In this document: in pieces, positions 1,387-52,430 of the stretch | Numbering within the stretch: position 1 is the first letter of the stretch | Layout: the number at the start of each line of letters is the position of its first letter | Assembly (NCBI GenBank): GCA_002343715.1 | Contig: DDSA01000106.1 | Location: 1-62,394, forward strand | DNA length: 62,394 nucleotides | Source of the DNA: Phycisphaerales bacterium UBA2402 | GTDB taxonomy: Bacteria > Planctomycetota > Phycisphaerae > Phycisphaerales > UBA1924 | Reading direction: 5' to 3' | Notes under the pieces: model-generated | Told to the model about the DNA's origin: nothing | The model's input: only the letters and a program-made list of their open reading frames with translations | Databases searched by the model: none | Position numbers and translations under genes: made by a program

Positions 1387-3789
1387 TCAGTTGCAGCCAC
1401 CGTTCTCCCACGCCGCGAAGAAGGCGTCCACATCCCCGCCGTCGATGCCGCCGTCGCAGTTCACGTCCGCCGCGGGTTCGCCGGCGCTCCACGCGTCGAA
1501 GAAGGCGTCCACATCCCCGCCGTCCACGCCGCCGTCCTGGTTGTAGTCCGCGGGGCAGGGGGGCAGGATGATGACGATGAGGTCGTCCGTGGCGGCGTCG
1601 CCCCGGTTGTCGGTCACAGTCAGCCGGATCGTGTGCGTACCGACCGGGATGGAAGCAACCACCGAGGCCGATGGTCCGCTGGCGATCAGATCGTCCCCCG
1701 GCATGAAGGCCCATCTGTAGTTGGAAATCGTGCCATCGGGGTCCGAACTACCCGAACCGTCGAGCGTGACCGATTCCTCTCCGCTGCAATCGCTGTCCAC
1801 CAGATCCGTCTGGTCGGGTCCCGCATCGGCGATCGGCGGTTGGTTCGCGCCGGACACCACGGTCATCACCACCGTGTCGGTCGCGGTCGCGCCGTCATCG
1901 TCGGTCACGGTGAGTTCGATGGTGTGAACGCCCACGGCGAGCGAGACCATCGATGTCGGCGAGGAGGATGAGGCCAGCGTCACGGCGCCCTCTTTCCAGA
2001 GGTAGTTGGTGATCGTTCCATCGGGATCGTTACTCCCGCTGCCGTCAAGCGTCACCACTTCCGCGCCGCTGTTGTCGGTGTCGGTCACGGTCTGGTCGGA
2101 CCCGGCGTTGGCGGTCGGCGGCTGGTTGGCCACTGCCCTCGAACCCGGCTCGCCCGCGGCCTGCATCAGGCGGTAGCCGGTCGCTCCCGGCTGTTGGGCA
2201 CGCGTCCAGTAGTAATACGGCACGCCCGGTGTCGCCGTGGTGTCGTCAAAGGAGAGCACGCCCGCGCCCAGCGTGGCGATGGTGGTGGCGAACTGCGGAT
2301 TGTCGATGGTGCCCCGCGCCACCTGGTACCCCGTCGCGTCGTTGATCACGCCCGGCCAGGTGATGCGCACCTTGTCGGTGAACGTGCCGTCGCTGGCATC
2401 GCAGGACAGGTCGGTCGTCGCCGCCGTGATGGAGAGCGTGTAGGCCTGCGGCCCCTGCACCACCCCGCTGGCATAGACCCGCACGGTGAAGTCGCCCGCC
2501 GGAGCGACCAGAAGGCCCGTGATCGTCTCGGCGCTGCCCGCTCCTGTGGCGTTCACCGAGCGGTAGGTCGCCGTGCCGCTGGCGCTGCGCACGTCCAGGG
2601 CGAGGTTCACGACGGCCAACGAGTTGGTCGTGGCCCACGACCCGCTCTGGCAATCACCGCTCTGCGGCGCATCCCCGTAGGTGCTGCCGTTGGGCGTGAC
2701 CGTCACGGTCACGAGGCGGGGTTGATCCAGTGTCGCCTTGAAGTAATCCGCGTCGAACGGGTCCGAAATGCTCAGCAGCGATGCGCCCGCCGGCGCGGGC
2801 GCGGGCACCGGGCCGAGCGTGAGCGTCACGCCAGGCGTGAGTGTTCCCAGCACGGACGCCGTCGCCGCGGTGGCGTTGGGCTCGTAGGGATCGCCGTAGA
2901 GCGACTGGGCGGCGCGGATATCGTCCTGCTGCGGGCCGTCGTACGCGTTGTTGATGTACGGCTCCATCAGTTTCCACGTCCCCGCGCCCGTCCCCAGCGG
3001 GCAGACGTGCGCGATGCCGAGGCCGTGCCCGTGCTCGTGGGCCACGACGTTGCGCAGGAAACGGTGACTGTTACTCGATGACTGCCACGACTCCCAGCGG
3101 TCCAGCACCATGTCTCCACCGCCGGAAGGGAACTGGTTGTACGCCAGCACCCCGCCCGCGCTGTCGATGCGCTTCATGGCGATGCGGATGTCGCCCCGCG
3201 TCGCCGACCCATCGCTGCCCCACGCCGCACCATCGTCCCACTCGCTGGTGCCGTTGCGGACACGCACGTACGTGATTCCCGTCAGCGCCTGCCAGCGGTC
3301 GAAGACCTGCTGAAAGCGCGAGATCCACAGCGCCCGGTTCGCCGCGCCGAACTGTGCATCCAGCCGGGCGAAGAGTTCGCTGTTTCCCGCCGGCTCGTTC
3401 TGAACGTTCCCGCCGGGGAGAGCCACACCGTCGGGCACGAAACTCCATGTAATTGTCACCGGGTTCGTGCCCCAGCGGCTGCCCTGCGTCTGGAACCGCT
3501 CGGCGTACCCGCGCATCACACGGTCGAGTTGCTCCATGACCTCCTTGCTCGGAGGGTCCTTGGGGTCATAACACGCGATACCGCGCGCGGGGTCAAGGGG
3601 GTTGCCGCCGCCGATGGGCCAAGCCGCTTCTTCCGCGGCGAAGACGGCCCACGCCGACCGCCCATCCTGAAAGTAGACGTTGCACGCCGGATAGTTCAGA
3701 CCGAAGTTCGGGTTGCGATACAGATCCGCCGCGACACAAACCCCCGCTCCCAGCAACACACCGATGATGGTGATCAAACGTGAACTCAT
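1387..3789 (-). CDS. Secreted matrixin-like zinc metalloprotease with two PKD-type domains and paired-loop C-terminal domain
   Basis: 800 residues. The N-terminus is a signal peptide (MSSRLITIIGVLLGAGVCVAA). The zinc motif HEHGHGLGIAH has ligands H251, H255 and H261 with catalytic E252, the HExGHxxGxxH pattern of matrixins (M10) and other metzincins. It is preceded by a typical astacin/matrixin-like beta region with GDIRIAMKRI. After the catalytic region come a pre-peptidase-C-like beta region, a fibronectin-like segment, and two PKD-like repeats (each starting NQPP with an internal LDGSGSxDPDG). Residues from about 745 form two Asp-rich loops, DYNQDGGVDGGD and DVNCDGGIDGGD, bracketed by Cys and ending GGCN. 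The start is supported by a strong AGGGAGG ribosome site just upstream. The substrate is unknown, probably an extracellular protein. Confidence 0.85.
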   Translation of the reverse strand: MSSRLITIIGVLLGAGVCVAADLYRNPNFGLNYPACNVYFQDGRSAWAVFAAEEAAWPIGGGNPLDPARGIACYDPKDPPSKEVMEQLDRVMRGYAERFQTQGSRWGTNPVTITWSFVPDGVALPGGNVQNEPAGNSELFARLDAQFGAANRALWISRFQQVFDRWQALTGITYVRVRNGTSEWDDGAAWGSDGSATRGDIRIAMKRIDSAGGVLAYNQFPSGGGDMVLDRWESWQSSSNSHRFLRNVVAHEHGHGLGIAHVCPLGTGAGTWKLMEPYINNAYDGPQQDDIRAAQSLYGDPYEPNATAATASVLGTLTPGVTLTLGPVPAPAPAGASLLSISDPFDADYFKATLDQPRLVTVTVTPNGSTYGDAPQSGDCQSGSWATTNSLAVVNLALDVRSASGTATYRSVNATGAGSAETITGLLVAPAGDFTVRVYASGVVQGPQAYTLSITAATTDLSCDASDGTFTDKVRITWPGVINDATGYQVARGTIDNPQFATTIATLGAGVLSFDDTTATPGVPYYYWTRAQQPGATGYRLMQAAGEPGSRAVANQPPTANAGSDQTVTDTDNSGAEVVTLDGSGSNDPDGTITNYLWKEGAVTLASSSSPTSMVSLAVGVHTIELTVTDDDGATATDTVVMTVVSGANQPPIADAGPDQTDLVDSDCSGEESVTLDGSGSSDPDGTISNYRWAFMPGDDLIASGPSASVVASIPVGTHTIRLTVTDNRGDAATDDLIVIILPPCPADYNQDGGVDGGDVDAFFDAWSAGEPAADVNCDGGIDGGDVDAFFAAWENGGCN

Positions 3790-3792
3790 GCT

Positions 3793-3800
3793 ACCTCCCT
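3793..3800 (-). promoter_or_regulatory. Shine-Dalgarno for the matrixin-like protease
   Basis: On the minus strand the sequence AGGGAGGT lies 3 bases before the ATG at 3789 (full spacing AGGGAGGTAGC-ATG). It is one of the clearest ribosome sites in the window and fixes the start of the protease. Confidence 0.7.
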
Positions 3801-4098
3801 AGGGGGTCAATGTCAGAACTCGGTGAAGAAGACCATCCGGAATCTCCCATCCAGAATCGGCCCTCCCGGGAACGAACCCCAGCGGGACCCTCCAAACTTC
3901 GGAGCAGGCCGATGCCGGTCGGGATGAACGAGGTGAATCATCGCCGCGCGTCCCCCGAATCGACGAACGCCGATCCGGTCGCGCGAACTCTTCCTCCTTC
4001 AATCATTCGCACGGACGAATGCCGGAGGTGCAGCCTGCTTGAAGTAATAATCCGTCCGAGAGGAATCGAGTTATCGAACCATCATCACGATTGCTCTC
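3801..4098. other. Intergenic region between gyrA 3' end and protease start, no gene seen
   Basis: About 300 bases separate the gyrA stop from the downstream protease start; both genes are on the minus strand. I see no convincing coding frame, no strong terminator hairpin with a T-run, and no recognisable RNA. It presumably holds the protease promoter, but I cannot point to boxes with confidence. Confidence 0.5.
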
Positions 4099-12069: not shown

Positions 12070-12564
12070 TCACTCGTCCGTGAGGGTGGCCTCGTGCTTG
12101 TCGGGTCCGCCCTTGGGATCACGAGGCTCGGCCTCGACCGACTTGCTGAGTTCCTCAACGCTGGGCAGAGTGAACTGCTCAAGGGCGGTGAAGAACGCCT
12201 CCAGATCGGCGCCGTCCACGCCGCCGTCGAAGTTCAAGTCGCCGGCGGCCCCACCCTCGGACCAGACCGCGAACATCGGGATGATGTCGTACTTGTTCAG
12301 TGTGCCATCGCCGTTGACATCGGCGGCCAGCGCCCGGTAGAAGGCTTCGATGTCATCCCCGTCCACGCCGCCGCTGCCGTCGACATCGGCGATGGGCAGG
12401 CCCGCCTCCCACGCCCTCATGTAGGCGTTGATGTGCAGTTCGCGGACGAGACTGTTGTCGAAACCACCGTCCGGGATGGTGCCGCTGTCGGGGGTGCCGC
12501 CCGCGAAGGCGAAACCGCTGGAGAGGACGAGAGAAGAGAGGCTCAACGCGAAAGTCCGGTTCAT
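12070..12564 (-). CDS. Small secreted protein made mostly of dockerin/EF-hand-like loops
   Basis: 164 residues. Signal peptide TFALSLSSLVLSSGFAFAGG. Three calcium-loop-like segments follow: DVDGSGGVDGDDIEAF at about residue 64, DVNGDGTLNKYDIIPMF at about 84, and DLNFDGGVDGADLEAFF at about 112. Between them the pattern keeps the AFF/W helix seen in the C-terminal domains of the large exported proteins here. Unlike those domains it has no cysteine, has three loops instead of two, and carries a polar tail of about 35 residues after the last loop. There is no catalytic domain. A good ribosome site, AAGGAG, precedes the ATG. Its role could be calcium binding or interaction with the paired-loop proteins; this is inference. 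Confidence 0.75.
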   Translation of the reverse strand: MNRTFALSLSSLVLSSGFAFAGGTPDSGTIPDGGFDNSLVRELHINAYMRAWEAGLPIADVDGSGGVDGDDIEAFYRALAADVNGDGTLNKYDIIPMFAVWSEGGAAGDLNFDGGVDGADLEAFFTALEQFTLPSVEELSKSVEAEPRDPKGGPDKHEATLTDE

Positions 12565-33348: not shown

Positions 33349-36165
33349 TCAGCAGCCGCCGTTCTCCCACGCTGTGAAGAACGTCTCGACATCGGCCCCG
33401 TCTACGCCGCCGTCCTCGTTCACATCGGACTGGGCTTCGCCATTGACCCAGGCATCGAAGAACGCGGTGATGTCCGCGCCATCGACGCCTCCGTCGCCGT
33501 TGAAGTCAGCGTAGCACAAGTCGCGTGTCTGGCAGACGATGCCCGCGATCTCGAAGTCATCCACGGCCGCCTCGACCAGCGACGCCGTGCCGGCATCCTC
33601 CGCGATGAACCGGACGCGGATCTGGTTGGTGGGCGTCAAGCCGAGCGAGGAAAGATTCCAGGTGGCGAATCTCCATCCCGGGTTGGTGTTCGGATCGGAA
33701 GCGCTCCCCGGTCCGACGGTCTCCGCCCGAGTCCACGTGGAGCCGTTGTTGGTGGAAACGTCGATCCGGAACGTGTCCGCGTAGGGACCGCTGGTGCTGG
33801 CCCCGTTGGAGTACCAGCGCCAGTACGACACCTGGGCATCGTCGAACCCGGCGAGGTTGTACGCCGCGGAGACGAGTGTGGTGTATCCGCCATCCACATC
33901 GGCGGTTCCGGCGGCCGCGCCGGCGGCGGCCTGGCCTGTCACCCAGCACATCGTCCCGATCGGCGAGCGGTCGTCCTCGGGCTGTGCGATGGTGCCGTTG
34001 GGATCGACCCGCACCCACGCGCCGGTGGTGGCGGTGGTATCTCCCAAGGCCCACCCCGAATCAGATTCGAAGTTGTGCGAGGCGATGATGACCTGCGCCG
34101 CGCTGATGGAGACCTGCTGCGTGCCCGAGGCCGGGAAGATCTTGTTTCCCTGGCTGGAGCCGACCTGCATGTAGAACTGCACGGTGTTGGGGCACGTCTG
34201 CGCGGGGATCAGCGCGCGGTACTGGTTCGCCGCGATCTGCGTCGCCACGATCTGCGTGAAGGTTGACTGCCCCGCCCGCCGCCAGAAGACGCGTCCGGAG
34301 TTGGGGGTGGGCACCACGCACAGACCAGCGACATTGAACCGCACCTCGATGGTCTCGCCCGGCGCGGCGCTGTCCGGCAACCCGGCGGGGAAGGAGAAGT
34401 TGAAGTCGGGGGAAGTGGGAAGGTTGATGCTGTGCTGCGAGAAGGCGTTGGTGATTTCGCAGATGTCGGGTGTGCCGTTGTCCAGGTTGCCGTCATCATC
34501 GTTGATCGTCAGCCACTGCGAAAGCGTGGCGGGGTGGGCCGAGTTGCCGGTCCCCTCACCGCCGAGCGTGATGCGGGCCCAGTCCATGTAATCCTGTCGG
34601 ACGCGTTCCATCCCGGGAGCCGAGCCGTACTTCGAGCCGTAGTTGCGGCGCAGTTCGCACATGACGCCGCCGAGAATTTCGCCGCCGGCGTGGACGGCGC
34701 ACGAATCGCAGGGGTACTGACGGTTGGTGGTGTCGGGCGTGCGGACGGCTCCGCCGGTGGTCCGGAAGTAGCGTCCTACAACGAAATCGTCGTACTGCAG
34801 GATGCTCACGCAATCGCCCATGCCCTCGCCGAAGGCGTTCTGCGCCAGACCGAGGCGGTTGACAAGATGGTGGCCGTACTCGTGGGCGATGACGCTGCTG
34901 AAGGCGGTGTTGTTGCACCCTCCGCCGGCGTTGTAGAAGTTGGTGGAACTGCCGTTGTAGAACGCGTTGCACGTGCCCGATACCTGCACGTTCGCGGGGA
35001 ACTGAGTGTCGATGTTCAGTTCGCCCGTGGGGCTGCCGGGTCCGAAGTTCGGGGCGTACTGCTTGATGAAGTTGTGCGTTGATGTCTGGTGGATGAAGGC
35101 GTTGACCTGCGCGGTGGTGAACTGATCCGGGGCCGTGTTCAGCGTCAGCGTCACGGGGGTGCCCGGGGTGGCGCTGGCCGATGCGGTCTGAAGCGCCGTC
35201 ACCGCGTCCACCACCCGGGCCCAGCGGCCGTCGCCCACCGAGCAGTCCACCGTCACCGGGGTCGAGCCGGACCAGGGGATCGTGAAGTTGCCGTCATCGT
35301 CGGTAAAGGCCGAGTTCGTGTTGTTCCCGTTGATCCGCACGCGGATGTTGGGCACGCCGCGCAGCGCGGGAGGATTCCCCGCGTGGTCCGCGGTGGCATT
35401 GCCCGCGGGAGAGGGTGTGGCGTTGGCCACCACCCGGCCGACCACGTCGATGTTCAGAATGTCGTTGCGGGCGTGGACGAGTTTCCCGCTTGCGGCGTCG
35501 ACGATGAACGTGAACTTGCGGGAGAAGGCACCCTCGGGCGCCTCGCCGACGAACCGCCACGCTCGGATCGCCTCCATCCGGGTCGGGAAATCCCCTTCGC
35601 CGAAATACACGATCAGCTCGGGTTCGGTCCATACCGGCAGCGTCTTGTACTCGCGGTAGGCACGCACCGCGGCGAGGGCCGCGGCGGGGCTGACGCCCGC
35701 GTGCGGGAAGCCTGCTTCGGGCCGCGGCGTGACTTTGGCGCCGGCGGAGATCACCGTGTGACCGGCGGCGGTGGGCAGCACCACCACTTTGACCATGCCG
35801 AACTCCACGGGCAGGCCGTCGAGCCACTGTGAATACGTGACGACGACCTTGCCGTCCGAGAGTTCGTTCTCCCACTCGTAGCGCAGCGAGAGGTCGCCCG
35901 CGCCGAAGGCACTCCCGTGGTTCGCGAGCCATGTGTCCGCGGCGACGCGTGGATCGTGCGCGGAGTTCATCGGCTTGCCGAAATACATGACCTCGGTTGC
36001 AGTATCAACAACTCGCAGGCCGGGGTACGTGTTGAGCAAACCCGCCCGATCACGGGCACGGTCCTGGACCGCATCACCCGCGCCCAGCGCCGACCCGACC
36101 ACGAGAACCACCAACGCCGCGCCGAACAAACCACGGGCACGAACCAACGAACTGGCCATCGTCAT
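33349..36165 (-). CDS. Secreted M36 (fungalysin)-like metallopeptidase with paired-loop C-terminal domain, copy A
   Basis: 938 residues from the ATG at 36165. N-terminal export signal (LFGAALVVLVVGSALGAG). A fungalysin/thermolysin-type propeptide follows (VMYFGKPMNSAHDPR, SQWLDGLPVEFGMVKVVV). A carboxypeptidase-regulatory-like insert reads RVRINGNNTNSAFTDDDGNF. The zinc motif HEYGHH has ligands H428 and H432 with E429; a third ligand is likely in FGEGMGD. Then comes a MAM/jelly-roll-like beta domain (VSYWRWYSNG, VRFIAEDAG). The C-terminal loops are DFNGDGGVDGADITAFF and DVNEDGGVDGADVETFF, ending GGC. Copy B, with the same architecture, is at 37.6-40.4 kb. The frame is open further upstream into the divergent methyltransferase gene, but the ribosome site supports 36165. 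Confidence 0.88.
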   Translation of the reverse strand: MTMASSLVRARGLFGAALVVLVVGSALGAGDAVQDRARDRAGLLNTYPGLRVVDTATEVMYFGKPMNSAHDPRVAADTWLANHGSAFGAGDLSLRYEWENELSDGKVVVTYSQWLDGLPVEFGMVKVVVLPTAAGHTVISAGAKVTPRPEAGFPHAGVSPAAALAAVRAYREYKTLPVWTEPELIVYFGEGDFPTRMEAIRAWRFVGEAPEGAFSRKFTFIVDAASGKLVHARNDILNIDVVGRVVANATPSPAGNATADHAGNPPALRGVPNIRVRINGNNTNSAFTDDDGNFTIPWSGSTPVTVDCSVGDGRWARVVDAVTALQTASASATPGTPVTLTLNTAPDQFTTAQVNAFIHQTSTHNFIKQYAPNFGPGSPTGELNIDTQFPANVQVSGTCNAFYNGSSTNFYNAGGGCNNTAFSSVIAHEYGHHLVNRLGLAQNAFGEGMGDCVSILQYDDFVVGRYFRTTGGAVRTPDTTNRQYPCDSCAVHAGGEILGGVMCELRRNYGSKYGSAPGMERVRQDYMDWARITLGGEGTGNSAHPATLSQWLTINDDDGNLDNGTPDICEITNAFSQHSINLPTSPDFNFSFPAGLPDSAAPGETIEVRFNVAGLCVVPTPNSGRVFWRRAGQSTFTQIVATQIAANQYRALIPAQTCPNTVQFYMQVGSSQGNKIFPASGTQQVSISAAQVIIASHNFESDSGWALGDTTATTGAWVRVDPNGTIAQPEDDRSPIGTMCWVTGQAAAGAAAGTADVDGGYTTLVSAAYNLAGFDDAQVSYWRWYSNGASTSGPYADTFRIDVSTNNGSTWTRAETVGPGSASDPNTNPGWRFATWNLSSLGLTPTNQIRVRFIAEDAGTASLVEAAVDDFEIAGIVCQTRDLCYADFNGDGGVDGADITAFFDAWVNGEAQSDVNEDGGVDGADVETFFTAWENGGC

Positions 36166-37598: not shown

Positions 37599-40409
37599 TC
37601 AGTTCGGACACTCGCCCGATTCCCAGGCGATGAAGAACGTCTCGATGTCGCCGCCGTCCACACCGCCGTCCTGGTTCACGTCCGCGGCGCTTTCACCCGT
37701 GCTCCAGACGAGGTAGAAGGCCTCGACATCGGCCCCGTCCACCCCGCCGTCGCCGTTGAAGTCCGCGTAGCACGGCGGCACGAGCGGACAACCGAATCCG
37801 CGGATCGCGAAGTCGTCGATGGCGGCTTCGACGGTGGACTCCGTCCCGGCATCCTCGGCGATGAAACGGACCCGTATTTTGTCCGAGGGTGCGAGGCCGC
37901 GGGCGGAGAGTTTCCACGCCGCGAAGCGCCACCCGGGGTTCACGTTCGGATCGGAGGCGCTGCCGGGGCCGACCGTCTCGCCCGAGCGCCACGATTGGCC
38001 GTCGTTGTCGCTCACCTCGATGCGGAAGCGGTCCTGGAACCGCGATCCCGAGACGCCGTTGGAGTACCAGCGCCAGTACGAAACCTCGACATCGTCGTAG
38101 TTGCGGAAATCGTAGAGCGGCGAGTTGAGGGTGGTGAACCCGCCGTCAACATCGTTGGCCGTGGCGGGGTCTCCCGCCTCGACCGACTGCTGCGTCACCC
38201 AGCACGATGTGCCGTGGGGAGAAGTGTCATCGCCCGGAGCGGCGGCGGTGGCGATCGGTTCGACCCGCGCCCAGAAGCCGGCGGTGGCTGTCGAATCGAC
38301 GAGGTCCCAGCCGGTGGGTCGCTCGAAATCGTCGGTGAACTCAGCGAACCGCTCTGCCACAAAGATCGTGGCGATCCCCGGCCCGTTGTTGACCGACGGC
38401 CAGTACTTGAACCCCTCGTTGGTGTTCACGCGGAAGTGATACTGAATGGAAGTGCCGCACTGCTGCCCGGGGAGGACGGCGAAATAGGAGTCGGGCACGA
38501 TCTGGTTCATCGTGACTTCGTTGTAGGTGGCGGCCCCGGCGTAGCGCCAGAAGAACCTGCCGGAGTTGGGCACCACGGTGATGCAGCGAGAGAAAACATC
38601 GGTGCGGAGCACGATGGGCGCCCCCGGCAGCGTGGGACGGGCGGGAAGACCGTCGGGGAAGAGGAAGGCGAAGGTGAGCGGCCCTTCGATGCCGTGCGCC
38701 TTGAAGGACGAGATGATCTCGCACAGGTCCGGCGTGCCGTTGTCCAGGTTGCCGTCATCGTCGTTGATGGTGAGCCACTCGGCGAGGGTCGTGGGATGCG
38801 CCGAGTTGCCGCCCCGCCCGCCCGCCGTGAAGCGCCCCCAGTTCAGGAACTCCTGGCGTGTCCGCTCCAGGCCCGGTGTCTGACCGTACTTCTGGCCGTA
38901 GGCCTTGCGTATCTCGCAGATCACCCCGCCGAGGATCTCACCCCCGTCGTGCGAGCCGCAGCCGTTGCAGGGGTACTGCCGGTTGGTGGTATCGGGCGTG
39001 CGGACGGGTGAGCCGTCAAGGAAGAAGAAGCGACCGATCACGAAGTCATCGTACTGAAGAATGCTCACGCCGTCGGAGAATCCCTCGCCGAAGGCCCGCT
39101 GCGCGAGCTGCAGCCGGTTCACGATGTGGTGGCCGTACTCGTGCGCGACCACCGTGCTGTACGCCGTGTTGTTGCACGTGCCCGAGGCGTTGAAGAAGTT
39201 GGTGGAACTGCCGTTGTAAAACGCGTTGCACTCGCCCTGCACCTGAACGTTCGCGGGGAACTGCACGTCGATGGAGAGTTCGCCCGTGGGGCTGTTGGGG
39301 CCCCAGTCGGGGGCGTATCGCTTGATGAAGTTGTGGGTGCTGGTCTGGTGGATGAAGGCGTTGGCCTGCGCGTTGGTGATCGCGCTTGGGGTCGCGTTCA
39401 TCGTCAGTGTCACGGGCGTGCCGGGAACGGCGTTCGCCGAAACATACTGAACCGGGTTCACGCCGTCAACCACCCTGGCCCATAGGCCGTCACCGAAGGA
39501 GGCCTCCACCCGCACCGGCGCGGTCCCGCCCCAGAAGATGCTGAAGTTGCCCTGATCGTCCGTGATCGCGGAGTTGGCGTTATTGCCGTTGATCCGCACG
39601 CGGATGTTCGGAACCGGCTGAAGGCTCGGGGGGTTGCCGGGGTGATCCGCCGCGGCGTTGCCCATCGGCGTCGGCGTGGCCTGTGCCATGACGCGCCCGG
39701 TGACGTTGATGTTCAGAATCTCGTTGCGCGCGTGGATGAGTTCGCCCGTCGCCGCATCCACAAAGAACGAGAACTTGCGGGCGAACGCCCCGATGGGCTG
39801 CTCACCCACGAACTTCCAGACTCGGCGGGCCGTGATCCACTGCTCAAGGTCGCCCTCGCCGAAATAGACGATCATCTCCGGATCGCTCCACACCGGAAGG
39901 GTCTTGTATTCGCGCACCGCCCGCACCGAGTCCACCGCCTGCTTCGCGGTCAGAGTCGCGGCCGGAAAACCTCCCGCGGGCCGTTCGGCCACTTTCGCGT
40001 TGGCCGCGACGACCGTGTGCCCCTCGGGCGAGTTCAGCACCAGCACGCGCACCACGCCGAACTCCACCGGCAGACCGTCCATGTGCTGAGCGAAGTTGAA
40101 GACCGTCATGCGCCCATGGTCGAGGTCATTCTCCCAGTTGAAGTTCAGGGAGAGTTCGCCGACGCCGAACGCGCGGGCGTGTGCCCGGATCCAGGTTTCG
40201 GCGGCGATGCGGGCATCGCCCGCCGCGTTCATCGGCTTGCCGTAGAACATCGCGGGCCGTCCCTGCCACTCCTCGACACGCAGGCCGGGGTATGCATCCA
40301 ACAGCGCGCGAGTGTCGGCGCGTTCAACGCCCCACGCCCCCGCGCTCAGGATCAGCGCCGCGAGTGCCGCGCCGACTGCCCGGCGCACGTTCGTTCCTTG
40401 CTTGGCCAT
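37599..40409 (-). CDS. Secreted M36 (fungalysin)-like metallopeptidase with paired-loop C-terminal domain, copy B
   Basis: 936 residues from the ATG at 40409, preceded by a GGAG ribosome site. Export signal VGAALAALILSAGAWG. Domain order matches copy A: propeptide (AMFYGKPMNAAGDAR, FAQHMDGLPVEFGVVRV), regulatory-like insert (RVRINGNNANSAITDDQGNF), catalytic core with HEYGHH (H423, E424, H427) and FGEGFSDGVSILQYDDF, then a beta domain (VSYWRWYSNG, VRFIAEDAG). The C-terminal loops are DFNGDGGVDGADVEAFY and DVNQDGGVDGGDIETFF, ending SGECPN rather than GGC. Long identical strings shared with copy A indicate duplication. It ends at a good terminator. Confidence 0.88.
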   Translation of the reverse strand: MAKQGTNVRRAVGAALAALILSAGAWGVERADTRALLDAYPGLRVEEWQGRPAMFYGKPMNAAGDARIAAETWIRAHARAFGVGELSLNFNWENDLDHGRMTVFNFAQHMDGLPVEFGVVRVLVLNSPEGHTVVAANAKVAERPAGGFPAATLTAKQAVDSVRAVREYKTLPVWSDPEMIVYFGEGDLEQWITARRVWKFVGEQPIGAFARKFSFFVDAATGELIHARNEILNINVTGRVMAQATPTPMGNAAADHPGNPPSLQPVPNIRVRINGNNANSAITDDQGNFSIFWGGTAPVRVEASFGDGLWARVVDGVNPVQYVSANAVPGTPVTLTMNATPSAITNAQANAFIHQTSTHNFIKRYAPDWGPNSPTGELSIDVQFPANVQVQGECNAFYNGSSTNFFNASGTCNNTAYSTVVAHEYGHHIVNRLQLAQRAFGEGFSDGVSILQYDDFVIGRFFFLDGSPVRTPDTTNRQYPCNGCGSHDGGEILGGVICEIRKAYGQKYGQTPGLERTRQEFLNWGRFTAGGRGGNSAHPTTLAEWLTINDDDGNLDNGTPDLCEIISSFKAHGIEGPLTFAFLFPDGLPARPTLPGAPIVLRTDVFSRCITVVPNSGRFFWRYAGAATYNEVTMNQIVPDSYFAVLPGQQCGTSIQYHFRVNTNEGFKYWPSVNNGPGIATIFVAERFAEFTDDFERPTGWDLVDSTATAGFWARVEPIATAAAPGDDTSPHGTSCWVTQQSVEAGDPATANDVDGGFTTLNSPLYDFRNYDDVEVSYWRWYSNGVSGSRFQDRFRIEVSDNDGQSWRSGETVGPGSASDPNVNPGWRFAAWKLSARGLAPSDKIRVRFIAEDAGTESTVEAAIDDFAIRGFGCPLVPPCYADFNGDGGVDGADVEAFYLVWSTGESAADVNQDGGVDGGDIETFFIAWESGECPN

Positions 40410-40799
40410 GAAAAACTCCGTTTCGAACCGCGTACGCATCGTCGATCCATGAACTGACTTTGAGCCGGGTGGCGAAGAATCAGCCCGAGGTAGAACACCC
40501 CTGCTCCCGGAGAACCAGTCTACACCCATACGGGGGTTGTAGGCCCCCTGTTTCGGACTGGAATCACGCGATCACGAATTCGCGCGATTCAAACAGAAAC
40601 CACGGGAGCCGAACTCTATGCAAACAACTTGCGCTGGGGCGCGTTTGCTCCGATGCTGTGCCCGAGAACTTCCCTGAACACGTCCTCCCATCTCGAAGAA
40701 GCCCGTGTGGTGTTGTTATCGCCACACTTCAAGCACCAGTTGAACAGTGAAGGCGATTCCGTCCTTCATAGCTGCGCCACTCTGAAAGTCTCGGCTTCG
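40410..40799. other. 390-base intergenic region between S8 and M36-like genes, with an imperfect inverted repeat
   Basis: No credible gene is seen. The ribosome site of copy B is at 40416-40419. An inverted repeat lies at 40561-40590: GAATCACGCG and CGCGCGATTC pair at 9 of 10 positions around a 10-base loop. It could be an operator or a weak terminator for the upstream S8 gene. I see no clear promoter boxes. Confidence 0.35.
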
Positions 40800-42965
40800 T
40801 CAGCACCCCGACTGCCACGCCGCGAAGAACGCTTCGACATCGGCTCCGTCGATTCCGCCGTTCTGATCGATATCGGCGCTGCCGTCGCCGGTTTCCCAGG
40901 CGTTGAAGAACGCCTCGACATCCGCCCCGTCAGCGCCGCCATCGCGGTTGAAGTCGCCGATGCAGGGAACCTCCGACACCGCGCCGGTAATGACCAGCGC
41001 GAACCCCTGCGTGCCGATGTTGACGGCCCGCCCCGAGACTTCAATCCGCCACCGACCCGGCGGCGGAGCGACGAGATGAACCTGCTCGGTGTTGTTGCGG
41101 ATGTCCGCATCGCCGCCGGTGGTGGAGAAGCCCCCGGCAAAGACGTTCCCGCGGTACACCTCGCCCGTGGGTGAGGTGAGCGTCAGGTCCAGGTCGTTGA
41201 CCGGCGCGAAAGATGCGTTGACCTCGGCGGGGACATCGGCGTACACCATCGTGACGCGCAGTGCCTGATCCGCCGCGTCGACGGAAAAATCGCTGAGGAA
41301 CGATTGCCCGGTCGAGAGCGCCTCGGCCGAGGCGTTGCGCACATCACGCACCAGCAGCCGGCGAACATCCCCGGCGAAATAGAGCGTCGAGTCCGCGAGC
41401 ACACGCCCCCACCCCTCGCGGAAGTTGGGATAGTCGGGCACACCTGTCATGTCCTGCCCGCTGTTGATGAGTGTGGCCTTCAGGAGCGAGCCGGTCGGCG
41501 AGAGGACATCGGCGGGCGTTTCGGCGCCCGAGGGGTAGAAGCCACGCATGTAATACTCTCGCACCAGCGCGGCGAGCCCCGTCACCGCCGGGCACGCCAT
41601 CGAGGTGCCGCTCGCGGATGTCGTAGCGCACCCCCCGTTGCCCGTCGAAGATGAAATCGCGCACCCCGGGGCGGCCACCTCGGGCTTGCGACGCCCGTCG
41701 AGCGTCGGCCCGATCCCGCCGAAGCACATCGTGTTCTCGTTGGGGTTGTTGTTGCTCGCCGTCACCGCCAGCGAGTTCTTGGCATTCTCGGGGTTGTGGA
41801 TGAACGCCGAATCGCTCACCGCGAAAAGAATGAGGCTCTCCTCGCTCTCGCGCTGAACGGTGTCGATGGCGCGGCAGCCGCCGTCGTAGGCGTCGATCCA
41901 GTCCGCGCCCCACGAGTTGCAGTGCACGCGGGCGCCCTGCGAGACGTGCAGCATGAACCGGTCGTAGTTGCTCTGCTCGTTCACATCGGGCCAGGTGTTG
42001 AAGACCATCTTGGCCCCGTAAGCGATACCCCGGTTGTTCCCGTTGGTGTTGTCGTTGCCCACCGCCGTCCCCGCTACGTGCGTGCCGTGGAAGTCGTACG
42101 AAGGAACGGCGTTGTAGGCCAGGATCTTGCGGTGAAGCGGGCCGACGGGATTGATCGGATCGTTGAACGCGCAGTGCGACCGCGCCACCCACCCGTCGAT
42201 GATGCCCACCACCTGCCCCACGCCCGTGATACCGCGCGCGTACAGGGGCGTCACGCTCGTCTGGTTGCTCTGGATCACCCAGCGCGTCGTCGCGTTGCTG
42301 CGGGGGGTGTACTCGGGGAACGGCTCGGCGTACTGCACATCCGGCACATCGGCCAGGGCCACGACGGACTCGGCCGGAAGAATGATGCCGATCGAGTGCG
42401 ATCCCGACACCAGGTCCACGCCACTCACCAACACACCGGGCATCGCCCCCAGCGCGGCCAGCGCCGCATCCGGTGCTGCCCCCGAAAAGAGCCAGATGTT
42501 CGCCGCGACACGTCCCTGAGCGGCGAGTTGGACGCGGGCCGGGGTCTGCCACGGATGCGGGTTCGCACCCGCCTTCAGGTGGGCATCGAGTTTCCACTCC
42601 CGCCGGTACTCAACGACGCCGCGAACAAAGGGCAAGGCCCGGAGTTTGGCCGGGGTCGTGCCGGTCAGGTCCGCGAGAAAGAAGTTGGTCGGGAAGTACG
42701 CCACAGGCTCCGCGCCCGCGGCCCGAAGGGCTTCGCGCCACGCGGGAGACATCGGACCATCCAGACGTATCAACCCACGGGTCGGCAGCACCTCACCCGC
42801 CAGCAAATCCGGCAATGTCGTCGAATCGACATCGCCCGAACGAAGGTTGATGACACCGTCACGCGGCGAAATCAGCGGAACTCTGTCACCGATGCCGACA
42901 TCCCCCGATGCGATCGCGCAACAGCCGGCAAGAGAAAACAGTGCGAGAGGACGGGCGGTGTTCAT
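40800..42965 (-). CDS. Secreted subtilase (S8) with paired-loop C-terminal domain
   Basis: 721 residues from the ATG at 42965; an upstream ATG at 42983 is also possible. The N-terminal signal (ARPLALFSLAGCCAIASG) is followed by a prodomain-like region of about 230 residues. Catalytic triad: D257 (VVGIIDGWV), H293 (DFHGTHVAGT) and S455 (SASGTSMACPAVTG). Where most subtilases have the oxyanion-hole Asn (AAGN), this protein reads FAVSDSAF, with Asp at 385. A beta-sandwich domain follows (LTLTSPTGEVYRGNVFAGG, WRIEVSGRAVNIG), as in KP-43-like subtilases. The last 55 residues carry loops DFNRDGGADGADVEAFF and DIDQNGGIDGADVEAFF between Cys, ending QSGC. It is the rightmost of the four exported peptidases. 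Confidence 0.9.
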   Translation of the reverse strand: MNTARPLALFSLAGCCAIASGDVGIGDRVPLISPRDGVINLRSGDVDSTTLPDLLAGEVLPTRGLIRLDGPMSPAWREALRAAGAEPVAYFPTNFFLADLTGTTPAKLRALPFVRGVVEYRREWKLDAHLKAGANPHPWQTPARVQLAAQGRVAANIWLFSGAAPDAALAALGAMPGVLVSGVDLVSGSHSIGIILPAESVVALADVPDVQYAEPFPEYTPRSNATTRWVIQSNQTSVTPLYARGITGVGQVVGIIDGWVARSHCAFNDPINPVGPLHRKILAYNAVPSYDFHGTHVAGTAVGNDNTNGNNRGIAYGAKMVFNTWPDVNEQSNYDRFMLHVSQGARVHCNSWGADWIDAYDGGCRAIDTVQRESEESLILFAVSDSAFIHNPENAKNSLAVTASNNNPNENTMCFGGIGPTLDGRRKPEVAAPGCAISSSTGNGGCATTSASGTSMACPAVTGLAALVREYYMRGFYPSGAETPADVLSPTGSLLKATLINSGQDMTGVPDYPNFREGWGRVLADSTLYFAGDVRRLLVRDVRNASAEALSTGQSFLSDFSVDAADQALRVTMVYADVPAEVNASFAPVNDLDLTLTSPTGEVYRGNVFAGGFSTTGGDADIRNNTEQVHLVAPPPGRWRIEVSGRAVNIGTQGFALVITGAVSEVPCIGDFNRDGGADGADVEAFFNAWETGDGSADIDQNGGIDGADVEAFFAAWQSGC

Positions 42966-44764: not shown

Positions 44765-45454
44765 ATGAACACACTTCAACGCGCGGCCTTTCTGGCCGCG
44801 GCGGCGGCCTGTATGTATGCCTCCGCCGATCCGGTTTGGAGCTATTTCCCCGAGGGGGATGCCTGGTACAACGTGCTGAGCAACAACGCCGCCCGCGAGC
44901 AAGGAACGGTCGAAGGACGAATCGGGAATCGGCTGAACATCGGCACGTGGGAACTGGGCATCTGGCGAGTGCACGACATCGGGCCGTTCCTGGCCCTGGG
45001 TCAACTCGAGTGGTTCAATGGCGTGGCCGCGCCCTTCTCGATTGTCTACGACGGGTCGAGGGGCGTGAGTTTCTCGCTTGGCACATCCACCATCACGACC
45101 ACGGAACTGGGCGGCACGTTCACCGATATTTTCATCCGCACGCGCTCGGCCACCTTCGGCGATGTGGACCTTTCGTCGATGCGGCTCTTCACCGCTTCGG
45201 GCGAACTGCCCATCGGCGACCTGGCTTCGATGGGCGCGGGCGATGTGGAGTACATCCGCATCGAGAACATGGGTCAGCGGTTCGGGGCGTTCGAACTTCG
45301 TGGGCAGATGAAACTCACCTGGCTGGCCAGCGATCCGCCGATCAACTCGCAGGTCAACGCCCAGTTCCGCTTCACCAACGTGCCCTCTCCCGCATCGCTC
45401 GCGGCGCTCGCTCCACTGGCGCTGCGCCCCCGCCGTCGCGCCTTCAGGGTGTAG
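44765..45454 (+). CDS. Secreted protein with PEP-CTERM-like C-terminal sorting tail
   Basis: 229 residues. Export signal TLQRAAFLAAAAACMYASAD. The mature part is beta-rich (GTWELGIWRVHDIGPFLALG, FSLGTSTITTTELGGTFTDI) with no catalytic motif. The C-terminus NVPSPASLAALAPLALRPRR resembles the PEP-CTERM signal: a Pro-Ser/Glu-Pro-Ala motif, a short hydrophobic run, and a terminal Arg cluster. It differs from the paired-loop Cys ends of other exported proteins in the window. A purine-rich ribosome site (GAGGGAGAG) precedes the ATG at 44765. Its 3' end overlaps the 3' end of the convergent kinase gene by 11 bases. Function unknown. Confidence 0.65.
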   Translation: MNTLQRAAFLAAAAACMYASADPVWSYFPEGDAWYNVLSNNAAREQGTVEGRIGNRLNIGTWELGIWRVHDIGPFLALGQLEWFNGVAAPFSIVYDGSRGVSFSLGTSTITTTELGGTFTDIFIRTRSATFGDVDLSSMRLFTASGELPIGDLASMGAGDVEYIRIENMGQRFGAFELRGQMKLTWLASDPPINSQVNAQFRFTNVPSPASLAALAPLALRPRRRAFRV

Positions 45455-47864: not shown

Positions 47865-47868
47865 CTGT

Positions 47869-48453
47869 TCATCCCTCTTCCGCGACCTGCGCCTCGATCA
47901 GCGCACTCAGCCTTTTCAGGATCCTGCTTTTGGACTGGTACACCGCGTCCACGCTCATGGAAAGGTCGCGTGCGATCCCCGCGGCATCGCGCCCGCCCAC
48001 GGCGTACATGGTGAACGCACTGCGGTCCTTCTCAGAAAACTCAACCTCGATCGTCGCCATGGCTCTGCGGAAGTGGTATTGCCGCCACTCATCCTCCCAG
48101 ACTTCTTCTTCATGCTCCTCGGACTCGTTCCCAGATTCCGACACACCAGTTAGGCCCGCTCCCGGAGGATTCTGACACATTCGCCGAGAAATCGCACGCA
48201 TGACGATTGTTTTGAGGTAGGACCGAAAACGCCCTTTCTCCGGGTCGTACCGGAACCCGGGCATCGACTTGGAGAGCGCGAGCAGCACTTCTTGTCGGAC
48301 GTCATCGGCATCCGCGATCTGCAAGCCGCGCCTTGCGCAGCACCCCCGTATCAAGTCCGCGTAGCGCGTACAGAACTCACCCCAGGCAGATTCATCATTT
48401 CCTTCGGTGAGGCGTGCAATTAGACTTGTATGTGTACGCGTTCCGGTGTACAT
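47869..48453 (-). CDS. ECF-type sigma factor paired with the Ser/Thr kinase
   Basis: 194 residues. Region 2: SAWGEFCTRYADLIRGCCAR, ADADDVRQEVLLALSKSMPG and GRFRSYLKTIVMRAISRRM. An acidic linker (SGNESEEHEEEVWEDEW) separates it from region 4: FSEKDRSAFTMYAVGGRDAA followed by the helix-turn-helix GIARDLSMSVDAVYQSKSRI. It is the first gene of a two-gene operon with the receptor kinase directly downstream. It is plausible that the kinase phosphorylates the sigma factor, as shown for some sigma/kinase pairs; this is inference. Confidence 0.88.
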   Translation of the reverse strand: MYTGTRTHTSLIARLTEGNDESAWGEFCTRYADLIRGCCARRGLQIADADDVRQEVLLALSKSMPGFRYDPEKGRFRSYLKTIVMRAISRRMCQNPPGAGLTGVSESGNESEEHEEEVWEDEWRQYHFRRAMATIEVEFSEKDRSAFTMYAVGGRDAAGIARDLSMSVDAVYQSKSRILKRLSALIEAQVAEEG

Positions 48454-48613: not shown

Positions 48614-48619
48614 AAGGAA
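48614..48619 (+). promoter_or_regulatory. Shine-Dalgarno of the large repeat protein
   Basis: AAGGAA lies 7 bases before the ATG at 48627 in an A-rich tract. The 173-base gap from the divergent sigma gene holds the promoters for both but no gene. Confidence 0.55.
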
Positions 48620-48626
48620 AAGTACG

Positions 48627-51600
48627 ATGTGCGCGCACAATGGTCCGGTAACGGCGGGGAAGAAATATGGCCGTTTGTTAGCCGCGGTGGCTGGGCTTTC
48701 GATCGGCCTGAGCAGCGCTTGTGCTCAGATGTCATGGATCGGCGGGACCGGGAGTTGGAACATCGCGTCGAACTGGACGCCGGCGAACGTGCCGGATAAC
48801 ACCGGCGAGACGGCGACGATCGGCGCGCTCGGCTCCTACGTGGTGTCGCTCACCGGCTCGGTCAATGTCGGCGCTGTCACGCTGACCAACCCGAACGGGC
48901 TACTCAACATCAACAACAGCCTCAACTTCGGGCTCGCCGGTGGTGGCTTGAGCAACGACAGCACCGTCACGATCAACCCCACCGCCGGATCGTCCGGCAC
49001 CTCGATCCAACTCCTGGCTTCGCAGCCGTGGAACGGCTCGGGCGCAGTCGTGCTCAACGCGAACGCCGGCAACCTCGAGACCGCCATCATCGGTTGGACC
49101 GGGGGTGGTGAATCCATTACACAAGGCGAAGGGCACTCGATCCTGGGCACCGGCCGCGTGTACACCTACCTCACCAACAACGGCACGGTGAATGCGAACG
49201 TCGCGGGCCGCACGCTCTGGCTCTCGAACCAGAGCAAGATCAACAACAATCTGTTCGCCGCGACCGGCGGCGGCACGCTGCTCATCACCACGCCGGTGGA
49301 CCAAACCGGCGGCGGCCGCATCGATGCCGATGGCGGCTCGCTGCGCCTCGGCGGCGGCTCATCCATCAGCGGCGGCTCGATCAATGTGTTCGGGGGCGGC
49401 GATGCCTCCACCAACCCCGGCGGCACGACCTGGTCGGGGGTCACGCTCACCGGGCCTTTCGGGATCACCAACAACACGCCCTTGTACGTCTCCAACAGCC
49501 TCACCAACAACGGCACGCTCACCATCAACCCCTCGGGCGGATCATCGAGCACGTTCCTCCAGTTGCTCAACAGTGTCGCCCTCAACGGGACGGGCGTGCT
49601 GGCGCTGAACGCCAACCCCGGGAACATCGAGACCGCCGTCATCACGTGGAGCGGCGGGGGCGAGGTGCTGACCCAGGCCGCGACACACACCATCCGCGGC
49701 TCGGGCCGCATTTACTCGCATCTGATCAACAACGGCAATGTGGATGCCGACATCTCGGGCCGCTCGCTGCTATTGAGCAACCAGGCCAAGACGAACAACA
49801 ACCTCATGACCGCTTCCGGCGGGGCGTTCCTCGACATCGCCTGCACCGTCACTCAGGGCCCCGGCGCGGCCATCCGGGCCATCAACGGCACGGCGCGGCA
49901 TTCGTCCGCGACCATCAACGGCGGATTTCTGAGCACGACGGGGACCGGCCTTCATCAAGTGACCGTTGGCTCGCGATGGAACAGCGTGACCCTCTCCGGT
50001 CTCGGTGCCGTCGAGAACAGCGTCTTCCTTCAACTGGCCGATGCGCTCACCCTCAACGGCACACTCACGGTCAACCGCACCGCCGGTTCCTCAAGCACAG
50101 GTCTCCAGGTGCTCAACAGCATGGGCATCGCGGGAGCGGGCACCATCGTGCTCAACGCCAACGCCGGCAATCTCGCAACCGCGAATATCACGTGGAACGG
50201 GGGTGGAGAGGTTCTCACGCTCGGCGCGAACCAGACCGTGCGGGGCACCGGGCAGGTCAACGTCAACACCACAAACAACGGCCTCATCCACGCCGACATC
50301 AGCAGCCGGACCCTGCAACTCCTCGGCCAGCCAAAGGTGAACAACGCGCTGATCCGGGCGAGCAACAACGCCACGCTCCTGGTCTCGGGCATCAGCATCA
50401 CGCAGGCCGCCGCGGCGGAGATTCTGGCGGACGCCGGGGCCGTCCAGTTCAGCGGGGCAACGGTCATCGGCGGCGGCGTGCGGGCGATCAACGGCGGGCT
50501 GTGCAGCATCACGGCAAACAGCCGTTTCGACGGAGTGACCGCGAGCGGCCCGCTCGAAGTGAACAACAGCACGAACCTCCAGTTGCACGCCAATCTGGTG
50601 AATAACGGTACGATCACCGTCAACCCGACCGCGGGCGGCAGCGGCACACTCCTTCAGGCCCTGAGTTCGCAGAACCTCGGCGGCACGGGCGAGGTCGTTC
50701 TCAACGCCAGCACCAACCTTGATACCGCCTACATCACATACAGCGGCGGAGGCGAAGTCCTGACGCACGCGGCAACACACACGATCCGCGGCACGGGGAA
50801 CATTCACGTCAATCTGCTCAACAACGGGCTTGTCAACGCCGACCGTGCCGGCAGGATTCTCTCCCTCCGGACCACGAACAAATCCAACAACGCCACGATG
50901 AAAGCCACCAACGGCGGCACGTTGTCGGTCAACGGCATTCTCATCTCGCAGTCCCCTGGCGCTCAACTCCTCGGGGACGGCGGGACCGTGCTCATCGCGG
51001 GGGGGCACATTGTCGGCGGTCACATGAACGCCATGAACGACGGGATGATTGATTTTTCCAGCAACAACAGAGCGGACGGGATCACGCTCGCCGGCCCGGC
51101 CCGTATCTTCAACGGATCGAGCCTCCAGATACACGCCAACCTCGTCAACAACGGCACGATCACCGTCAACCCGACCGCCGGCGGTAATGGAACATTCGTG
51201 CAGGCGCTTTCAACCCAGGGCCTGAACGGCACAGGCGAGGTCGTCCTGAATGCGAGCACCAATCTCGACACCGCCTACATCACCTACAACGGCGGAGGTG
51301 AAGTTCTCACGCACGCGGCGACGCACACCATCCGCGGCACGGGCCGAGTCTACGTCAGCCTCGCCAACGACGGCTTGGTGCACGCCGACCGCGATGCTCG
51401 AGTTCTGGAGTTGCTGGGCATCTCGAAGACCAACAACGCCACCATGAAGTCCTCCAACGGCGGCATCCTCGCCGTGACGAGCATCGGTCTTACTCAAGCC
51501 CCCACAGCGCAACTCCTCGGCGATGGAGGCTCAGTCAGAATCTTCGGAACCACGATCTCAGGAGGGCAGGTCAACGCCACCAACGGAGGTTTGAGCAGCG

Positions 51601-52430
51601 TCACGGGCAACAGCCGTTTCAACACCGTCTCGATTTCGGGACCGTTCCATGTGAACAACGGGGTCGCGTTGCAGATCGCCGACGGCCTTACGAACAACGG
51701 AACGATCACAGTCAACCCGAGCATGTCATCATCGGGCACCTTCATTCAAGTCCTCAACAGCCAGACTTTCGGCGGGTCCGGCGCGATCTATCTGAACGCT
51801 AACCCCGCTAACCTTGACACGGGCTACATCTTCTACAACGGAGCCGGCGAGGTTCTTATTAACGGCGAGGGCCACACCATCGGCGGCACCGGGAGAATCT
51901 ACGTCCGCACCCACAACAACGGCATCCTTTCGCCGGGGCGGCCCGGCAGCCCCATCGGCCTGCTCAACCTGCAGGGCGTAACAGACCTTTCCTTCGGCGC
52001 AACCGGCGAGTTCCACTGCCAGCTCGCCGGGTCCGGCGATGCCAACGCCGACCGCATCACCAGCTCCCGGCCCATCACGCTCGACGGTGTCTGCCGCGTG
52101 AGCATCGTGCCCCCCTTTGTCGCCAGCCGCGATGAATCGTGGACCATCATCACCGCGCCGAGCATCACCGGCGCCTTCGCCGAACTCGCCGCGCCGCCCG
52201 CCGTCAACGGCATCGGCTACCGCCTCGAGTACTTCTCCAACCGCGTCGTACTCCACGCCGTCTGCTACGCCGATGTGAACAACGACGGCGGTATCGACGG
52301 CGCCGATGTGCAGGCCTTCTACGACCTCTGGGAAGCCGGCGATCCCGTCAGCGACCTCAACAACGACGGTGGCATCGACGGCGCCGATGTGGAGGTCTTC
52401 TTCGAACTCTGGGAGGGCGGCGGCTGCTGA
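48627..52430 (+). CDS. Large exported beta-solenoid-like protein with six tandem repeats of about 182 residues
   Basis: 1267 residues. Export signal LLAAVAGLSIGLSSACAQ. The mature N-terminus MSWIGGTGSWNIASNWTPAN is shared in pattern with the 17.7 kb protein. Six units follow, each containing an NNGTxTxNPxxGxSGT-like start, then an LNxTGxVVLNA strand, a GGGEVLTxAATHTIRGTGxI block, and an N-x-A-x-M/L-K/x-xxNGG segment. The last unit passes into GGTGRIYVRTHNNGILSPGR, a terminator-like cap, then a Pro-rich end. C-terminal domain: DVNNDGGIDGADVQAFY and DLNNDGGIDGADVEVFF between Cys, ending GGGC. No enzyme motif. Probable role: surface fibre, adhesin or matrix protein (inference). Confidence 0.8.
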   Translation: MCAHNGPVTAGKKYGRLLAAVAGLSIGLSSACAQMSWIGGTGSWNIASNWTPANVPDNTGETATIGALGSYVVSLTGSVNVGAVTLTNPNGLLNINNSLNFGLAGGGLSNDSTVTINPTAGSSGTSIQLLASQPWNGSGAVVLNANAGNLETAIIGWTGGGESITQGEGHSILGTGRVYTYLTNNGTVNANVAGRTLWLSNQSKINNNLFAATGGGTLLITTPVDQTGGGRIDADGGSLRLGGGSSISGGSINVFGGGDASTNPGGTTWSGVTLTGPFGITNNTPLYVSNSLTNNGTLTINPSGGSSSTFLQLLNSVALNGTGVLALNANPGNIETAVITWSGGGEVLTQAATHTIRGSGRIYSHLINNGNVDADISGRSLLLSNQAKTNNNLMTASGGAFLDIACTVTQGPGAAIRAINGTARHSSATINGGFLSTTGTGLHQVTVGSRWNSVTLSGLGAVENSVFLQLADALTLNGTLTVNRTAGSSSTGLQVLNSMGIAGAGTIVLNANAGNLATANITWNGGGEVLTLGANQTVRGTGQVNVNTTNNGLIHADISSRTLQLLGQPKVNNALIRASNNATLLVSGISITQAAAAEILADAGAVQFSGATVIGGGVRAINGGLCSITANSRFDGVTASGPLEVNNSTNLQLHANLVNNGTITVNPTAGGSGTLLQALSSQNLGGTGEVVLNASTNLDTAYITYSGGGEVLTHAATHTIRGTGNIHVNLLNNGLVNADRAGRILSLRTTNKSNNATMKATNGGTLSVNGILISQSPGAQLLGDGGTVLIAGGHIVGGHMNAMNDGMIDFSSNNRADGITLAGPARIFNGSSLQIHANLVNNGTITVNPTAGGNGTFVQALSTQGLNGTGEVVLNASTNLDTAYITYNGGGEVLTHAATHTIRGTGRVYVSLANDGLVHADRDARVLELLGISKTNNATMKSSNGGILAVTSIGLTQAPTAQLLGDGGSVRIFGTTISGGQVNATNGGLSSVTGNSRFNTVSISGPFHVNNGVALQIADGLTNNGTITVNPSMSSSGTFIQVLNSQTFGGSGAIYLNANPANLDTGYIFYNGAGEVLINGEGHTIGGTGRIYVRTHNNGILSPGRPGSPIGLLNLQGVTDLSFGATGEFHCQLAGSGDANADRITSSRPITLDGVCRVSIVPPFVASRDESWTIITAPSITGAFAELAAPPAVNGIGYRLEYFSNRVVLHAVCYADVNNDGGIDGADVQAFYDLWEAGDPVSDLNNDGGIDGADVEVFFELWEGGGC
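48963..51950 (+). repeat. Six tandem in-frame coding repeats, period 546-552 bases
   Basis: The codons for T-x-T/x-x-N-P in each unit begin at 48963, 49515, 50061, 50610, 51156 and 51702, giving steps of 552, 546, 549, 546 and 546 bases. Units 4 and 5 are the most alike (VNNGTITVNPTAGG and LNASTNLDTAYITY occur in both), which suggests recent duplication or gene conversion. The first and last units are the most divergent. The right boundary is approximate. Confidence 0.85.

What the first reader, a model, noticed from the sequence alone, without database searches (positions are those of the whole stretch)
1387..52430. Seven exported proteins share a C-terminal twin-loop domain clasped by two cysteines
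Seen in sequence: proteins at 1.4, 17.7, 30.9, 33.3, 37.6, 40.8 and 48.6 kb all end in a domain of about 55 residues with two D-x-N-x-D-G-G-x-D-G-x-D loops, each followed by an A-F-F-x-x-W-like helix. One Cys comes just before the first loop and one comes 0-2 residues from the very end (GGC, GGCN, GGCV, SGC, GECPN). The loops match the calcium-binding spacing of dockerins and EF hands (established). I recall such 'GC'-ending dockerin-like domains in Phycisphaerae. Inference: the two Cys form a disulfide clasp, or the terminal Gly-Cys is a processing or anchoring signal. The bodies are unrelated (M10-like, M36-like, M1, S8, beta-solenoid), so the domain acts as a portable address or docking tag.
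Basis: partly seen in the sequence, partly recalled or inferred. Interest (0 to 1): 0.75.

Follow-up and report, generated by a model that had tools for sequence, protein, structure and literature searches.

The report
Cysteine-clasped dockerin tags without cohesins
Over a hundred secreted proteins of this planctomycete end in the same small calcium-type docking domain, apparently locked shut by a disulfide bond between its two ends, and bacterial lineages write the domain in different sequence dialects, which suggests that a still unknown receptor reads it.

Summary
Seven window proteins end in a two-loop dockerin domain with one Cys exactly three residues before loop 1 and one 0-2 residues from the end; all seven pass NCBIfam NF041540 "GC-type dockerin", so the domain itself is catalogued. 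The genome holds at least 140 such tails.

The terminal Cys looks like half of a disulfide rather than a processing signal. Across 334 tails of 11 genomes both Cys are present in 312, neither in 14, the last alone in 8, the first alone in none. Among 120 listed homologues of the window's S8 protease 106 have both, 12 neither.

Tails within a genome resemble each other (62-87% identity) but mostly not those of other lineages (26-39%; one pair 59%), and S8 bodies carry their own genome's version. Seven of eight tag-rich genomes show no Pfam cohesin, none of 22 genomes a sortase; exosortase does not track the tag.

Best reading: a calcium-folded, disulfide-clasped docking tag read by an unidentified, co-diverging receptor. 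The clasp is well supported; receptor, calcium and location are inferred.

The parts
1387..3789 (-). M10 (matrixin)-like secreted protein with PKD repeats; tag at 1390-1557 (Cys...GGCN)
17714..19978 (+). Secreted protein, body without Pfam match; tag at 19808-19975 (Cys...GGCV)
30933..33263 (-). M1 aminopeptidase-like secreted protein; tag at 30936-31100 (Cys...GGC)
33349..36165 (-). Secreted HExxH protein, start moved to ATG 36165; tag at 33352-33516 (Cys...GGC)
37599..40529 (-). Secreted HExxH protein (true start may be nearer 40409); tag at 37602-37772 (Cys...GECPN)
40800..42965 (-). S8 subtilase, start at ATG 42965; tag at 40803-40964 (Cys...SGC); homologues used as the dialect test
48627..52430 (+). 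Large secreted protein, body without Pfam match; tag at 52263-52427 (Cys...GGC), used for the structure model
12070..12564 (-). Small secreted protein made of several dockerin/EF loops, no Cys, acidic C-terminal tail; related domain but not the tag

Best explanation
The tail is a dockerin-type docking module used as a genome-wide C-terminal address tag for exported proteins. Proteins leave by an N-terminal signal peptide. The tail folds around two calcium ions, and a disulfide between the Cys just before loop 1 and the last Cys locks its two ends together, a covalent version of the non-covalent head-to-tail clasp of some cellulosomal dockerins. The two similar half-repeats present a two-fold surface to one receptor per lineage, on the cell surface or in the matrix, that is not a recognisable cohesin. 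When that receptor changes, the tags of the genome change with it, giving the dialects. Shown: scale, Cys covariation, dialects, repeat symmetry, no Pfam cohesin in 7 of 8 tag-rich genomes. Inferred: calcium binding, the disulfide as such, the receptor and the place of anchoring.
For: Seven of seven window tails pass NF041540. 151 matches in G000, with only 150 of 204 candidates scored. Cys pair: 312 both, 14 neither, 8 last only, 0 first only of 334. S8 homologues, the 120 listed of 849: 106 both, 12 neither, 2 unclassifiable (exceptions re-sorted by eye); the 12 without the pair all have another Cys pair (loop 1 plus linker). A second pair covaries, odds ratio 42. Fold: pLDDT 91 and the eight best Foldseek hits are dockerins. 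Dialects 0.62-0.87 within genomes against 0.26-0.39 between lineages, G251-G278 0.59; S8 homologues carry their own genome's dialect. Codons at shared residues agree 0.57 against 0.48 expected, so uniformity is hardly recent gene conversion. Half-repeats match each other 0.55 against 0.21 for permuted tails.
Confidence: 0.62

Rival explanations
1. The terminal Gly-Cys is a cleavage, lipidation or thiol-anchoring signal recognised by a dedicated enzyme; the first Cys is incidental.
For: The last Cys is the more constant of the two: seven two-loop tails keep it without the first, none the reverse. It sits within 2 residues of the end in 318 of 320 tails that have it.
Against: Both-or-neither pattern; the residue before it varies and G278 L215 runs on 12 residues past it; no sortase in any of 22 genomes and exosortase in all 22, tagged or not; no membrane segment follows the domain.
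Confidence: 0.1
2. The domain is only a calcium- and disulfide-stabilised end cap that helps folding or secretion; there is no receptor, and dialects arose by founder effect plus domain shuffling.
For: No Pfam cohesin in 7 of 8 tag-rich genomes; both Cys outlast loss of calcium ligands in P0118.
Against: Homologous S8 bodies have each the dialect of their own genome, and both half-repeats change together, which a mere cap does not demand.
Confidence: 0.22
3. It is a classical cohesin-dockerin system whose cohesins are too diverged for Pfam, like the planctosome proposed for freshwater planctomycetes (PMC6461901). It shares the docking idea with the best explanation and differs in the receptor.
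For: PMC6461901 (passages read) reports cohesin/dockerin modules with peptidases in Nemodlikiaceae. In G278 a weak cohesin (22.7 bits, 19.6, cut-off 24.1) lies in an M10 protein directly downstream of a tagged S8 protease.
Against: A search with that G278 module matched nothing by its cohesin part in the ten other genomes, only by its dockerin part. PF00963 at E up to 1 found nothing in seven tag-rich genomes, G000 being 87% complete; the named relatives G294-G296 were not searched with PF00963.
Confidence: 0.3

Closest known systems
NCBIfam NF041540 dockerin_GC (GC-type dockerin domain-anchored protein)
   Same: Domain, C-terminal position, terminal Gly-Cys; seven of seven window tails over the cut-off
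   Different: A name and a profile only, as far as I saw. Of 10 S8 homologues picked by hand for different tails it recognises 5 over its cut-off and lists 5 not at all, two of which lack the Cys pair, so the family is wider than the model
Cellulosomal type I dockerins (Pfam PF00404)
   Same: Two calcium-type loops with helices, two-fold repeat, predicted fold; a head-to-tail clasp is known there as ring stacking (PMC4728124, passage read)
   Different: Two Cys instead of ring stacking; no Pfam cohesin in 7 of 8 tag-rich genomes; only one of the seven tails is listed for PF00404, under its cut-off
Planctosome proposal, cohesin/dockerin peptidases in Nemodlikiaceae (PMC6461901)
   Same: Planctomycetes, dockerin-bearing secreted peptidases
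   Different: That model, in the passages read, has cohesins and two kinds of tagged peptidases; here over 140 tags and no Pfam cohesin in the genome
PEP-CTERM/exosortase C-terminal sorting
   Same: Many-to-one C-terminal tag on exported proteins (its helix and basic end are recalled)
   Different: No membrane segment or basic tail here; exosortase present with or without the tag; PEP-CTERM counts 10-23 in the eight tag-rich genomes, 56-144 in six and 0 in one (G220) of seven tag-free genomes of the order, 24-83 in seven others of the class (E 0.1)

Membership tests
NF041540 dockerin_GC | Profile score over the curated cut-off | tested here: met
   7 of 7 window tails 29.1-35.4 bits, cut-off 29
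NF041540 dockerin_GC | C-terminal position with terminal Cys | tested here: met
   7 of 7 in the window; 141 of 142 parsed tails in G000
Type I dockerin | Two loops with Asp/Asn ligands in EF-hand-like spacing | tested here: met
   Column counts over 137 tails: loop-1 D 136, N 127, D 128, last D 137; loop 2 137, 133, 134, 137
Type I dockerin | Dockerin fold | tested here: met
Type I dockerin | Pfam PF00404 over gathering score | tested here: not met
   Only one of the seven is listed, 18.4 bits, cut-off 22.9
Type I dockerin | Calcium binding | not testable with these tools
   -
Cohesin-dockerin system | Cohesin encoded in the same genome | tested here: not met
   0 in G000 and six other tag-rich genomes at E up to 1; one weak in G278. 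Diverged cohesins not excluded
Sortase-anchored proteins | Sortase in the genome | tested here: not met
   PF04203 0 of 22 genomes; 3 of 14 controls rang
PEP-CTERM/exosortase | Tag with membrane helix and basic end, tracking exosortase | tested here: not met
   Tails end 0-2 residues after the Cys in 318 of 320; exosortase in 22 of 22 genomes with or without tags
Type IX secretion cargo | SprA in the genome | tested here: inconclusive
   PF14349 0 of 15 genomes, but no control rang either
Disulfide clasp | Disulfide observed | not testable with these tools
   Only covariation

The most novel reading that the evidence does not exclude
A cohesin-free dockerin address system: more than a hundred exported proteins per genome carry a disulfide-locked, two-fold symmetric tag read by one unknown, non-cohesin receptor that has co-diverged with all tags at once in each lineage, and the system has largely displaced PEP-CTERM sorting in one planctomycete family.
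Probability: 0.3. Interest if true: 0.75.

Novelty: new variant of a known kind. Interest (0 to 1): 0.55.

Why it matters
At least 140 proteins (204 first-look candidates) in a genome of 4.3 Mb carry a tag whose receptor and destination are unknown. The Cys covariation turns an odd C-terminal Gly-Cys into a testable disulfide clasp, and the dialects give a direct handle on the receptor: it should bind tags of its own lineage and not those of another. If true, it would be a large protein-display system in Phycisphaerae that works like a cellulosome's docking step without recognisable cohesins.

Tried and rejected
Cohesin as partner: PF00963 in G000 at E 0.01 and in 22 genomes at E 1: none in seven of eight tag-rich genomes. 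The weak G278 hit was followed: one M10 protein, matched elsewhere only by its dockerin part.

Sortase, exosortase and SprA as dedicated machinery; only the first two are informative.

Recent gene conversion as the cause of uniform tails: codon test. Mean codon identity 0.57 is somewhat above the 0.48 expected; I read this as near saturation, not as proof of no conversion.

M1 orthologues as the cross-dialect test: close relatives (64-72% identical, one of them split over two contigs) were found only in same-dialect genomes; the more distant homologues printed are untagged. The S8 protease served instead.

S8 in tag-poor genomes as a tag-swap test: 1 weak match in 14 genomes, so no swap could be seen.

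Literature: 'GC-type dockerin' 0 papers; other searches. I saw their listings, and passages only of PMC6461901, PMC11557425, PMC12484212 and PMC4728124. PMC3035643 and PMC3821032 are not held. Absence from print is claimed only for these searches.

Counts dropped or changed: one search counted tails with a slipped register and was replaced. One search parsed 141 tails and printed 3 that it could not parse. One search left out L132 (masked bases) and every tail whose loops its rule did not fit, among them L166. One search used only tails with loops 27 residues apart, and its matrix only genomes with five or more such tails, so not G270 (2). One search used ten S8 tails; that of G034 and the second ones of the g2 genomes were left out. 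In one search the script counted 102 both, 10 neither, 5 last only, 3 first only; I re-sorted the 18 exceptions by eye to 106 both, 12 neither, 2 unclassifiable (P0122 without a tail, P0123 irregular).
Full report
WHAT IS THERE. Seven exported proteins of the window end in a domain of 54-57 residues with two D-x-N-x-D-G-G-x-D-G-x-D-like loops, a Cys exactly three residues before the first loop and a Cys 0-2 residues from the end. All seven pass NCBIfam NF041540, GC-type dockerin. So the domain is not new as an annotation, although a search for its name found no paper in the held library. Bodies differ: M10 with PKD repeats, M1, S8, two HExxH proteins without a family over its cut-off and two without any Pfam match. 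Ten tagged proteins, drawn at random with two others from 82 complete ones of two named relatives, show M12B, phytase-like, beta-lactamase-like and Ig domains in four; the other six have no body family over its cut-off.

SCALE. The genome G000 (4.29 Mb, 280 contigs, 87% complete) gives 151 matches, with only 150 of 204 candidates scored. I fetched the listed places and parsed 143 distinct tails. In 294 genomes of the phylum 20 match at E 0.001 and 11 over the cut-off; at most 19 candidates per genome were scored there. Seven genomes of the window's family and one other of the order are rich (64-223 first-look candidates each, most of them not scored), while seven genomes of two other families of the same order have no match. 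A scan of named genomes for the window's own version, capped at the best 80 matches, returned 77 loci of three records: Planctomycetota SZAS-3, Phycisphaeraceae ACE_PLA8 and Phycisphaerales LaPlata_bin-2707.

THE TWO CYSTEINES. Pooled over 11 genomes, 334 tails: both Cys 312, neither 14, last only 8, first only 0 (Fisher 1.7e-19, not corrected for relatedness). One of the eight, L002, has three loops and its first Cys stands before the first of them. Two of the 14 (L291, L311) look like dockerins of other types. In G251 and G278, where loss is common, 20 tails have both and 10 neither, with none discordant (with a looser parser gave 20 and 11). In G000 alone 135 have both, 6 the last only and 1 neither. 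Among the 120 listed of 849 homologues of the window's S8 protease, 106 tails have both, 12 neither, and two cannot be classed (exceptions re-sorted by eye). All 12 without the pair have instead a Cys in loop 1 and one in the linker; they resemble each other and may be one event. Two G251 tails with the first Cys one residue further upstream (L166, L219) also lack the last Cys and have one in loop 1. A second pair, an extra Cys 1-8 residues upstream of the first and a Cys in the linker, covaries too: 57 both, 64 upstream only, 4 linker only, 187 neither of 312. Cysteines that come and go in pairs are what disulfides leave behind. The known type I dockerin clasp, Tyr-5 stacking on Pro-66 so that head and tail are held together (PMC4728124, passage), makes an end-to-end disulfide geometrically reasonable. 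I could not measure the distance in the model. Against a pure clasp: the last Cys outlives the first in seven two-loop tails and never the reverse.

DIALECTS. Tails of one genome are 62-87% identical to each other over 40 loop and helix positions, tails of different lineages only 26-39%, except that G251 and G278 are 59% alike. G000, SZAS-3, ACE_PLA8 and LaPlata share one version (69-71% between them), and the four genomes of genus g2 another. The S8 protease shows that the tag follows the genome and not the body: bodies are 41-48% identical between the window and G270 or G278, yet those tails match their own genome at 0.60-0.70 and the window's S8 tail at 0.25-0.35. The more distant g2 homologues, about 25% body identity, behave alike (0.61-0.63 against 0.28-0.32). 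Reciprocal orthology was not tested. Both half-repeats change together: over 15 dialect representatives they agree 0.55 with each other and 0.21 when permuted. At shared residues codons agree at 0.57 against 0.48 expected from body usage, so the protein is held uniform by selection more than by recent copying.

PARTNERS. No Pfam cohesin in seven of eight tag-rich genomes, no sortase in 22, exosortase in all 22. SprA was not found but no control rang, so nothing follows. PEP-CTERM counts (E 0.1) are 10-23 in the eight tag-rich genomes, 56-144 in six of seven tag-free genomes of the order and 0 in the seventh (G220), and 24-83 in seven tag-poor genomes of the class; Mann-Whitney p = 0.024 for the order, G220 included. 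This suggests, no more, that the dockerin tag took over part of the sorting.

MECHANISM. I think it most likely that the tail is a docking module: exported by its signal peptide, folded by calcium, locked by a disulfide and held by one receptor per lineage. Steps shown are the sequence facts above; calcium, disulfide, receptor and destination are inferred. It works like a dockerin; membership in the cohesin-dockerin system fails on the one feature tested, a cohesin in the genome, with diverged cohesins not excluded.

Noticed in passing
window 12070-12564 (-): Small secreted protein built of several dockerin/EF loops without Cys and with an acidic tail; scores 33.1 bits on NF041540 although its loops are not C-terminal.
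   Followed up: partly
L355-L373 (G000, G270, G294, G295, G296), L291:4682-6379: A second dockerin type, found with the last part of a G278 protein, has 4-6 matches (E 0.01) in each genome of the window's dialect and one in G270. The two copies I read, in G278 and L291, share DDLYA and lack the terminal Cys pair.
   Followed up: partly
L173:364-2070 (G278 C6): M10 protease with a weak cohesin (below the Pfam cut-off) between two dockerin-like parts, directly downstream of a tagged S8 protease.
   Followed up: partly
window 40800-42965 (-): The S8 protease family has matches in 10 of 11 tag-bearing genomes at E 1e-10 (some only 25% identical) but one weak match in 14 tag-poor or tag-free ones at E 1e-12; a shared history or a role in the system.
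   Followed up: partly
L122 (G000 C136:10199-10748) and P0118: Rare tails that lost one feature: L122 without either Cys, P0118 with both Cys but calcium ligands lost.
   Followed up: no
window 45444-48453 (-): Ser/Thr kinase with TPR repeats next to a small sigma-70-family factor gene, divergent from the tagged 48.6 kb gene.
   Followed up: no
window 57064-58875 (+): OLD-like ATPase with TOPRIM domain next to a RecQ helicase.
   Followed up: no
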